45,927 nucleotides of DNA from Pseudoxanthomonas koreensis (GTDB lineage Bacteria > Pseudomonadota > Gammaproteobacteria > Xanthomonadales > Xanthomonadaceae), in assembly GCF_010093225.1 (NCBI RefSeq), contig NZ_PDWM01000026.1:1-45927 (forward strand), read 5' to 3'. This document shows, piece after piece, positions 13,372 through 14,033 of the stretch; position 1 is the stretch's first letter, and each line of letters begins with the position of its first letter. Position numbers and translations under genes: made by a program. The notes below the pieces were generated by a model. That model ran no database searches, was not told the origin of the DNA, and worked only from the letters and a program-made list of their open reading frames with translations.

Positions 13372-13406
13372 GCAACAGCAACAGCAACAGCAGCAGCAAC
13401 AGCAAC
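13372..13406. repeat. GCAACA/GCAGCA triplet tract
   Basis: A run of CAA/CAG triplets lies 45 nt after the mfd stop. It borders the outer side of inverted arm 1, mirroring the hexamer tract outside arm 2. This is probably replication-slippage DNA. Confidence 0.8.
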
Positions 13407-13428
13407 CACAAAAGCCTTGGGCACGCAG

Positions 13429-13584
13429 CTCCGGAGGGAGTCCGCCGTTACAGCGGGGTATGGCCCACCCTTCGGGACGACATCCTGTCTTTACGAAGGG
13501 CCGTGGCACATCCATGTGCCACTTGGGCCATACCCCACTGCAACGACGGCCTTCGGGAACGTTGGGGTTTGCGCCGTGCGGTTC
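13429..13584 (+). repeat. Structured inverted arm 1 of the mfd-SLC13 intergenic element
   Basis: This arm of about 156 bp matches, in inverse orientation, arm 2 at 13810-13964, with one 1-bp gap. It folds into a 22-bp stem (13446-13467 with 13524-13545) enclosing a perfect hairpin GTGGCACAT/ATGTGCCAC (13503-13522). It also contains CCCTTCG/CGAAGGG. Differences between the arms preserve pairing at two stem positions (T-A to C-G, G-C to T-A). Short open frames through it are probably not genes. Function unknown: candidate structured RNA, ssDNA hairpin or mobile repeat. Confidence 0.75.
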
Positions 13585-13631
13585 AAATTGTGAGCAGACC
13601 GAACAATCGTCCCATCCCGCATTTGTTTTTT

Positions 13632-13767
13632 TGTAGGAGCTCCCTTCAGGGGCGACGCGAGGACGCCGGAACGCAGCTGCGTTCAACGCGCCGGCTCCGG
13701 AGACCATGCTTGGTATGAAACTGCGCCTTCCAACGTCGTCGGGTCGCCCCTGAAGGGAGCTCCTACA
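13632..13767. repeat. TGTAGGAG-family inverted repeat pair (copy B)
   Basis: It begins TGTAGGAGCTCCCTTCAGGG and ends with its inverse, with a CTCCGGAG palindrome in the centre. It lies exactly between the two large inverted arms, so two repeat families are nested. Each arm folds by CCC/GGG around TTCA. Confidence 0.85.
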
Positions 13768-13809
13768 GAAGAGCAGGCCCCTGTCGGAAAGGCGGCCTGG
13801 ATGGTCCCA

Positions 13810-13964
13810 GAGCCGCAGGCGCGAACCCCAACGTTCCCGAAGGCCGTCGGCGCATGGGGGTATGGACCAAGTGGCACATGGATGTGCCACGGCCCTGAGT
13901 AAAGACAGGATGTCGTACCGAAGGGTGGGCCATACCCCCATGCGGCGACGGACTCCCTCCGGAG
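13810..13964 (-). repeat. Structured inverted arm 2 of the mfd-SLC13 intergenic element
   Basis: This is the inverted partner of 13429-13584. Its long stem pairs 13844-13869 with 13926-13951 (26 bp, two mismatches) around the hairpin GTGGCACAT/ATGTGCCAC (13871-13890). The CTCCGGAGGGAG end faces outward, as in arm 1. Confidence 0.75.
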
Positions 13965-13979
13965 CCGACGAAACCAACC

Positions 13980-14033
13980 GCCGTTGCCGCTGCCGCTGCC
14001 GTTGCCGCTGCCGTTGCCGCTGCCGTTGCCGTT
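13980..14033. repeat. Nine GCCGTT/GCCGCT hexamers abutting the SLC13 gene stop
   Basis: Nine consecutive hexamers, GCCGTT or GCCGCT, fill 13980-14033. Seen from the SLC13 gene, the tract starts inside its TAA stop (14032-14034). Its position outside arm 2 mirrors the CAA/CAG tract outside arm 1, so the whole 13372-14033 block is a mirror-like composite. No gene is seen in this block of about 700 bp. Confidence 0.85.

What the first reader, a model, noticed from the sequence alone, without database searches (positions are those of the whole stretch)
13372..14033. Composite inverted element with covarying stems between mfd and the SLC13 gene
Two 155-bp arms (13429-13584 and 13810-13964) lie head to head around a TGTAGGAG palindrome pair. 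Each folds into a 22- to 26-bp stem around an invariant GTGGCACAT/ATGTGCCAC hairpin. Aligning the arms shows compensatory changes in the long stem: a T-A pair at 13449/13542 is C-G in arm 2, and G-C at 13453/13538 is T-A. At two further positions a mismatch in arm 1 is a pair in arm 2. This suggests selection on structure, not protein. In arm 1 the two mismatches (A.C, C.A) become G.U wobbles on minus-strand RNA. The block is bounded by a CAA/CAG run on one side and GCCGTT/GCCGCT hexamers on the other.
Basis: partly seen in the sequence, partly recalled or inferred. Interest (0 to 1): 0.8.

Follow-up and report, generated by a model that had tools for sequence, protein, structure and literature searches.

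The report
Scattered paired RNA sponge-like repeats
The block between two genes is one of dozens of scattered inverted-pair repeats, each half of which appears to encode a folded RNA that displays two docking sites for the global RNA-binding regulator CsrA (RsmA), so these bacteria may carry a regulator "sponge" spread over the whole chromosome.

Summary
In detail: two 148-nt arms, 90% complementary, in a 704-bp gap between convergent genes. It is a dispersed element: 50 arm matches in the own genome, matches in 15 of 17 genus genomes and in 70 of 198 family genomes, 26 of 54 genera. Covariation is strong: 22 of 22 outer-stem pairs have double changes; score 0.575 against 0.153 shuffled. Outer-stem mismatches are G·U (147) rather than A·C (8) on the outward-reading strand, so RNA is what is selected. 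On that strand each arm is a three-way junction with two hairpin loops, C[ANGGAN]G and CA(N)GGANG, about 25 nt apart: the published CsrA/RsmA site and bridging distance. Loops stay while stems change. Some facing partner arms in relatives pass Rfam's threshold for TwoAYGGAY, a family predicted to bind CsrA; the window's arms do not. I read it as a TwoAYGGAY-like RsmA-binding RNA spread as inverted pairs behind genes, so that a transcript from either side carries one sense copy. Transcription, RsmA binding and titration are inferred, not tested. The TGTAGGAG pair in the middle is a REP-type insertion.

The parts
13427..13592 (-). Left arm, RNA strand is minus (reads outward, to the left); covariance-model core 13446-13545
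   Evidence: arm HMM hit; R1 hit 13446-13545:-; predicted fold -71.9 kcal/mol
13503..13522 (-). Left arm hairpin H1, GUGGCACAUGGAUGUGCCAC, hexaloop AUGGAU closed by C-G
13468..13500 (-). Left arm hairpin H2, CCCUUCG...CGAAGGG with apical GACAGGAUGUC (13479-13489)
13624..13775 (.). Central TGTAGGAG inverted pair (REP/BIME-like), a separate repeat nested in the element
   Evidence: I2; stand-alone copies; without arms at the mfd site of G002 and as a tandem array in G011
13807..13971 (+). Right arm, RNA strand is plus (reads outward, to the right); core 13848-13947
   Evidence: arm HMM hit; R1 hit 13848-13947:+; predicted fold -61.7 kcal/mol
13871..13890 (+). Right arm hairpin H1, GUGGCACAUGGAUGUGCCAC
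13893..13925 (+). Right arm hairpin H2, with a tandem G·A/A·G step in its stem and apical GACAGGAUGUC (13904-13914)
13372..13405 (+). CAA/CAG run outside the left end; GCAACN-type runs flank some other copies; relevance unknown
13980..14033 (+). GCCGTT/GCCGCT hexamer run outside the right end, running into the stop codon of the SLC13-type gene; relevance unknown

Best explanation
The element is a dispersed RNA element. Each arm, when transcribed on the strand that reads outward from the centre, folds into a three-way junction (outer stem P1, hairpins H1 and H2) that presents two CsrA/RsmA-type GGA sites about 25 nt apart, a spacing that one CsrA dimer can bridge. Two such arms lie head to head behind stop codons, so a read-through transcript from either neighbour carries one arm in the sense orientation. 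With up to more than a hundred arms per genome, the likely effect is to bind RsmA: either titrating it globally (a decentralised CsrB/RsmZ substitute), or tethering it to the 3' ends of host mRNAs. Shown here: the repeat, the fold with covariation, the RNA strand, the conserved GGA loops, their spacing, the placement and the taxonomic spread. Inferred: transcription, RsmA binding, titration and any phenotype. The TGTAGGAG pair is a REP-type insertion in the middle.
For: Covariation over 57 distinct arms: 22 of 22 P1 pairs with double changes, score 0.575 against 0.153±0.008 shuffled and at most 0.109 when slid. A Watson-Crick-only scan that did not require GGA gave 164 distinct structures: 157 have GGA in the H1 loop and somewhere in the H2 segment, 151 meet the strict patterns CANGGANG and CA(N)GGANG. 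P1 mismatches on the outward strand in those 157: G·T 147, A·C 8; 83 against 9 distinct contexts. GGA-to-GGA distance 25 nt in 103 of the 153 that meet the strict patterns, range 20-30; published bridging range 10-63 nt with optimum above 18, SELEX consensus RUACARGGAUGU, CsrB element CAGGA(U/A/C)G, RsmE hexaloop ANGGAN (PMC7652899 section 4). CsrA family match in 38 of 41 genomes, including all 17 of the genus, though the one in G014 is split by a stop; the own CsrA keeps L4 and R44. TwoAYGGAY passes its gathering score in 5 of 17 genus genomes, and four of those hits face an R1 arm by coordinates. Context: 34 convergent, 35 tandem, 3 divergent of 72 called, against 9/20/8 of 37 window gene pairs. 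In the single-contig genome G011, 47 of 48 close pairs are ordered '- +'.
Against: No transcript, binding or phenotype data. Most loci were fetched by similarity to the arm or by a model that contains GGA, so the loop statistics are only partly independent (the facing class B arms are the cleanest sample). The G·U excess is a P1 result: in the H2 stem of alignment A1 there are 8 A·C cells and 4 G·T cells, mostly at its outermost pair, and with A1's fixed columns the P1 excess is 55 to 12, less than with each arm in its own register. H1 stems have 7-8 pairs, whereas most SELEX ligands had four or fewer contiguous pairs. A class A transcript spanning both arms is predicted to fold into one long arm-arm duplex that would hide the sites. 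Of three solo arms in tandem context, two lie antisense to both neighbours. In genus g7 the four pairs seen read inward, not outward. Two of 17 genus genomes have no R1 match but have csrA. A few arms have lost GGA in a loop (L116, L199, the L122 partner).
Confidence: 0.68

Rival explanations
1. A MITE- or ERIC-like non-autonomous transposon whose inverted structure serves transposition at the DNA level; the GGA loops are incidental.
For: Similar copies at unrelated sites, TIR-like ends GCGTCGGCTCCGG, whole composites up to 89% alike. Of 16 readable mfd neighbourhoods in the genus only two hold the arms.
Against: DNA-level selection would treat G·T and A·C alike, but in P1 they differ 147 to 8. 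It does not explain GGA loops kept beside replaced stems in the ten other genera looked at. Two G003 elements tested both have an element-like sequence at the same site in G012, so no empty site was seen. No transposase-bearing relative was searched for. Mobility and RNA function can both be true.
Confidence: 0.12
2. A cis-acting bidirectional 3'-end element (terminator or RNase block) for convergent genes; RsmA plays no part or only a local one.
For: Placement behind stop codons, with divergent gaps depleted. Very stable stems. REP-like repeats are hypothesised to act in termination and mRNA stabilisation (abstract start of PMC3733652, listing).
Against: By eye no U-run follows the arms as a rule; no terminator scan was run. 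A pure terminator or stabiliser needs no conserved GGA loops or near-fixed 25-nt spacing.
Confidence: 0.13
3. Palindrome upkeep by mutation (template switching in quasi-palindromes) or gene conversion among copies, not selection, creates the compensated stems.
For: Stems differ by whole blocks between copies, and some orthologous elements have diverged more than their flanks.
Against: Such processes are blind to strand and would not leave a G·U excess on one strand of P1 or hold the loops constant across genera.
Confidence: 0.05

Closest known systems
TwoAYGGAY RNA (Rfam RF01731)
   Same: External stem plus two hairpins with GGA loops. A tandem G·A/A·G step in the H2 stem of 34 of 57 arms; tandem GAs in one stem are named for TwoAYGGAY in PMC4333381 (passages). 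RF01731 exceeds its gathering score in 5 of 17 genus genomes; four such hits face an R1 arm.
   Different: The window's arms do not reach its threshold, and their H2 loop is AGGAU, not AYGGAY. Whether the tandem GAs sit at the same place in RF01731 was not compared. Dispersed head-to-head pairs, up to 137 arm matches per genome, were not mentioned in the passages I saw.
CsrB / RsmX / RsmY / RsmZ sponge sRNAs
   Same: Repeated GGA motifs in hairpin loops, the basis of CsrA/RsmA capture (PMC7652899 section 4).
   Different: Those are dedicated sRNA genes; here the sites are spread over tens of intergenic copies. No Rfam match to them in the stretches searched.
RsmU of Xanthomonas campestris
   Same: An RsmA-binding RNA from a 3' untranslated region; Xanthomonas is a related genus (recalled) (PMC7694677, abstract and passages).
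   Different: A single locus, reported as confined to Xanthomonas; not described there as a repeat or an inverted pair.
REP / BIME repeats with RAYT transposases
   Same: The central TGTAGGAG inverted pair; Y1_Tnp matches in 15 of 17 genus genomes, 14 over the cut-off. PMC2817692 and PMC3686654 print GTAGGAG (listing only).
   Different: The REP pair is nested in the element and also occurs without it; the arms themselves were not found in such REP families here.
ERIC / enterobacterial repeat units (MITE-like)
   Same: Dispersed, non-coding, palindromic, intergenic, 100-500 bp (recalled; PMC2759123 seen only in the listing).
   Different: No GGA three-way junction is known to me for ERIC; that comparison is recalled, not tested.

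Membership tests
TwoAYGGAY (RF01731) | Score at or above Rfam gathering (43 bits) | tested here: not met
   Window arms: no RF01731 match at gathering or at E<=10. Own genome best 32.7 bits at G000:C34:19791-19912. Hits over the cut-off in 5 of 17 genus genomes, e.g. G002:C31:158114-158236 at 50.9 bits, which faces an R1 arm.
TwoAYGGAY (RF01731) | Two hairpins with AYGGAY loops under a common external stem | tested here: inconclusive
   External stem and two GGA hairpins are met. H1 loop AUGGAU fits AYGGAY; H2 loop of the window arms is AGGAU and does not.
TwoAYGGAY (RF01731) | Tandem G·A pairs in one stem | tested here: met
   34 of 57 arms show G·A at columns 54-79 and A·G at 55-78, including the window's right arm; the left arm has Watson-Crick pairs there. 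Position against RF01731 not compared.
CsrA/RsmA-binding RNA | GGA in the loop of hairpins, ANGGAN hexaloop or CAGGA(U/A/C)G | tested here: met
   151 of 164 distinct structures meet the strict patterns in both hairpins; loci were partly chosen by a model holding GGA.
CsrA/RsmA-binding RNA | Two sites 10-63 nt apart, optimum above 18 | tested here: met
   20-30 nt in the 153 structures that meet the strict patterns, 25 nt in 103 of them; range from PMC7652899.
CsrA/RsmA-binding RNA | Demonstrated binding and antagonism of CsrA | not testable with these tools
   Needs EMSA, co-IP or a reporter assay.
MITE / transposon | Target-site duplication and defined ends | not tested
   TIR-like ends were seen; duplications were not measured. 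The two empty-site searches found occupied sites.
MITE / transposon | Related autonomous element with a transposase | not tested
   No search for a transposase between such arms; Y1_Tnp presence alone is no link.

The most novel reading that the evidence does not exclude
Xanthomonadaceae control RsmA through a decentralised, mobile sponge: dozens of TwoAYGGAY-like modules carried as inverted pairs so that insertion in either orientation behind any gene works. Copy number and the transcription of many host operons together set the free RsmA level, in place of a dedicated CsrB/RsmZ gene.
Probability: 0.33. Interest if true: 0.9.

Novelty: new variant of a known kind. Interest (0 to 1): 0.8.

Why it matters
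According to PMC7694677 (passages), a search found no significant homologue of the known CsrB/Rsm sponges in any sequenced Xanthomonas genome. Repeated GGA-hairpin RNAs in 26 of 54 sampled genera of the window's family would give RsmA there a large pool of competing sites. It would also mean that a class of 'junk' intergenic repeats carries a regulator-binding RNA, and it would give the orphan family TwoAYGGAY a genomic setting and a directly testable function.

Tried and rejected
Rfam at the gathering score and at E<=10 gave no credible family for the window; the miRNA and Mcr7 lines are far below threshold and reflect long stems. A match to phages, plasmids or viral contigs (one exact 20-mer) was sought: none. 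A protein reading was set aside because the changes are compensatory; no coding test was run. Empty sites between two near relatives were sought for two elements (L155, L156): both sites are occupied in G012. Whether solo arms lie sense to the upstream gene: of three in tandem context L021 is sense, L015 and L033 are antisense. An integron attC site was considered and set aside from recall, not scanned. Paper searches for CsrA or RsmA with repeat, sponge, REP, MITE or genus terms and for TwoAYGGAY (7 papers, 5 listed, passages of two seen) showed nothing that reports this element; mostly listings, so weak evidence of absence.

Rows dropped before counts: 10 raw descriptor hits (9 with P1 at 15 of 20, 1 REP pair), 21 of 267 raw hits with P1 below 17, the other 82 lost rows being duplicates. 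Of the 7 odd rows, one is a REP pair, two are unrelated hairpins (L140, L147), two are folds of the opposite strand (L117, L120) and two are arms that lost GGA in H1 (L116, L199). The H2 'GGA' test is loose (it passes the L122 partner, whose loop has lost GGA); the strict count is 151 of 164. Gene context: one search left out 9 of 30 loci with one neighbour uncalled; one search left out 11 without a descriptor arm and 9 with one neighbour uncalled; one G003 element (C35, about 58.3 kb) is counted twice there. The binomial p treats contexts as independent, which they are only in part. A draft of this report gave 35 arms with tandem GA, said that most single-looking arms have partners, placed the right H2 one base off and credited loop conservation to 26 genera; and a re-reading mended these.

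Full report
WHAT IS THERE. One search confirms two 148-nt arms, 90% complementary, a 29-nt inner stem in each, the 20-nt hairpin GTGGCACAT../..ATGTGCCAC, and a central TGTAGGAG inverted pair. The own genome (93 contigs) holds five further full copies of about 540 bp, other arms, and separate copies of the central pair (alignment of the six full copies). The flanks of the six do not align while the elements do, up to 89% identity to the window's copy.

TWO CLASSES OF ARM, ONE ARCHITECTURE. Of 25 own-genome loci that looked single (L014-L038), 12 have a facing partner of different sequence: 11 by the arm HMM and L038 by the descriptor. Five of the other 13 are cut by a contig end (L023, L024, L028, L029, L032), and eight look truly single. 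In the commoner class (B) the left arm has the stem CACCTTGGGTATATGG and the right arm CGTTCTGTCGCATTGGGGGTCG, yet both have the same plan. The space between arms varies: none (L017), another REP type (GTAGAGCGGGGC, L018, L019), or the TGTAGGAG pair (window). Ends often share a TIR-like GCGTCGGCTCCGG.

STRUCTURE AND COVARIATION. On the strand that reads outward from the centre each arm folds as P1 (20-26 bp) closing two hairpins, H1 and H2. A Watson-Crick-only descriptor that asks for a hairpin and an enclosing stem, and for no loop sequence, gave 57 distinct arms in the loci then held, 10 raw hits dropped. On their alignment A1, 93.5% of cells pair, 35 of 39 pairs and 22 of 22 P1 pairs have changes on both sides, and the covariation score is 0.575 against 0.153 in shuffles and at most 0.109 in slid controls. 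Relatedness inflates the comparison with shuffles, as the tool warns; the slid controls keep relatedness but favour a structure derived from the sequences.

RNA, AND WHICH STRAND. A stem kept for DNA reasons should carry G·T and A·C mismatches equally. In the final descriptor set (164 distinct structures; 267 raw hits, 21 dropped for a weak P1, the rest duplicates), P1 of the 157 with GGA in H1 has, on the GGA strand, 147 G·T and 8 A·C; by distinct sequence context 83 against 9. Read on A1's fixed columns, where some arms are out of register, P1 gives 55 against 12. The H2 stem gives no such excess: 4 G·T and 8 A·C cells, six of the eight being C·A, five of them at its outermost pair. Both arms therefore look like RNA transcribed outward, on the evidence of P1. 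In the single-contig genome G011, 47 of 48 arm pairs closer than 800 bp are ordered minus-plus, one is minus-minus, and 41 arms are single at this threshold.

THE LOOPS. With no loop requirement, H1 loops among the 57 arms were CATGGATG 44, CAGGGATG 9, CATGGACG 2, CAAGGATG 1, CAGGAATG 1; H2 loops were CAGGATG 34, CAGGACG 12, CAGGGACG 6, and one each of CAGGAAG, CACGGATG, CAGGGATG, CAAGGACG, CATGGATG. In 13 loci from nine other genera the stems differ but GGA persists in both loops except in the L122 partner; L122 and L124 keep GGA in H2 without the preceding CA. In the full set 157 of 164 have GGA in both by a loose test and 151 by a strict one. PMC7652899, section 4 read, gives the CsrA SELEX consensus RUACARGGAUGU, the CsrB repeat CAGGA(U/A/C)G and the RsmE hexaloop ANGGAN; it also gives bridging of two sites 10 to 63 nt apart with an optimum above 18. 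Among the 153 structures that meet the strict patterns the two GGAs are 25 nt apart in 103 and 20-30 in all. All 17 genus genomes have a CsrA match, split by a stop in G014, and the own one keeps L4 and R44.

SPREAD. Model R1 finds arms in 15 of 17 genus genomes: 50 in the own, 137 in G011, 82 in G007, none in G009 and G010 (at most 150 candidates scored per genome, so counts may be low). In a sample of 198 family genomes, the genus included, 70 have a match, in 26 of 54 genera (stricter filters, 20 candidates scored each). The genus is probably Pseudoxanthomonas: an exact pattern hit P. kaohsiungensis, and the mfd neighbourhood in that record (L087) carries arms with the same scores as G007 (L077). 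In genus g7 a lower-scoring variant (37-43 bits) with the same two loops occurs in the alignments shown, but its four pairs read inward.

RELATION TO TwoAYGGAY. At E<=5 Rfam gave RF01731 at 40.6 bits for a facing arm in another genus (L120). Searched directly, RF01731 passes its cut-off in 5 of 17 genus genomes and 5 of 198 family genomes. Four of the genus hits over the cut-off coincide with or face R1 arms by coordinates: G002:C31:158114, G011:1050503, G011:1003724 and G013:C74:537; the rest were not checked. The RMfam paper (PMC4333381, passages) predicts that TwoAYGGAY binds CsrA and notes tandem GAs in one stem; 34 of 57 arms here have a tandem G·A/A·G step in H2. PMC2864571 lists TwoAYGGAY for human gut, gamma-Proteobacteria and Clostridiales (table passage). 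The window's arms are below threshold, so I call them TwoAYGGAY-like, not members.

PLACEMENT AND HISTORY. With a simple codon-usage gene call, 21 of 30 own loci with both neighbours called are 11 convergent, 10 tandem, 0 divergent. Other sets give 23, 25 and 3 of 51. Together 3 of 72 are divergent against 8 of 37 adjacent gene pairs in the window (Fisher p 0.007); orthologues in G003 and G012 are not independent and one element is counted twice. Thus nearly every called element lies behind at least one stop codon. At the mfd site, of the 16 of 17 genomes that could be read, only G000 and G007 have the arms; G007 lacks the REP pair, G002 has a REP pair alone, G011 a REP array, and G001 and G016 have almost no gap; in several genomes another gene follows mfd. 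So the REP pair is an independent insertion. Between the near relatives G003 and G012 several elements sit at the same sites, some with diverged inner sequence, so the elements persist and can evolve faster than their flanks.

HOW IT PROBABLY WORKS. Inference: an mRNA that runs past its stop codon carries the far arm in sense, which folds and binds an RsmA dimer through H1 and H2; the near arm is antisense and shows UCC loops. With dozens of such tails the cell holds many RsmA sites without a dedicated sponge gene. An alternative within the same reading is a local role, RsmA at the 3' end protecting or destabilising that mRNA. In the window's class A copy the two arms can pair with each other into one long hairpin, which could switch the sites off when a transcript spans both; the class B copy folded (L017) pairs mainly within arms.

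LIMITS.

Noticed in passing
G011 mfd-SLC13 gap (L072, from 2100): A tandem array of several TGTAGGAGCGG... REP pairs occupies the same intergenic site where the window has the arm element.
   Followed up: partly
L031 right flank; window 13372-13405 and 13980-14033; L005/L008: GCAACN / GCCGTT hexamer runs of variable length stand just outside some element ends, about 15 units in L031; origin unknown.
   Followed up: no
G000 contig ends C6, C8, C29, C34, C44, C59: Several contigs of the draft genome begin inside or at an arm, so these repeats seem to break the assembly and some elements are seen as halves.
   Followed up: no
Class B right arms, e.g. L018 about 1520-1535: A third possible GGA hairpin, CGACAGGACGTCG, overlaps the 5' side of P1 in several class B right arms and could compete with it.
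   Followed up: no
L197-L214 (G022, genus g7): In another family genus with about 5-Mb genomes the arms are a different variant and the four pairs seen read inward with about 440-490 bp spacing.
   Followed up: partly
L017, L018 and L015 left flanks: Short tandem duplications of the element's outer 25-48 bp lie upstream of some copies.
   Followed up: no
G007: Three CsrA-family matches in one genus genome, two of them weak, against one in most others; that genome also has many arm matches (82).
   Followed up: no
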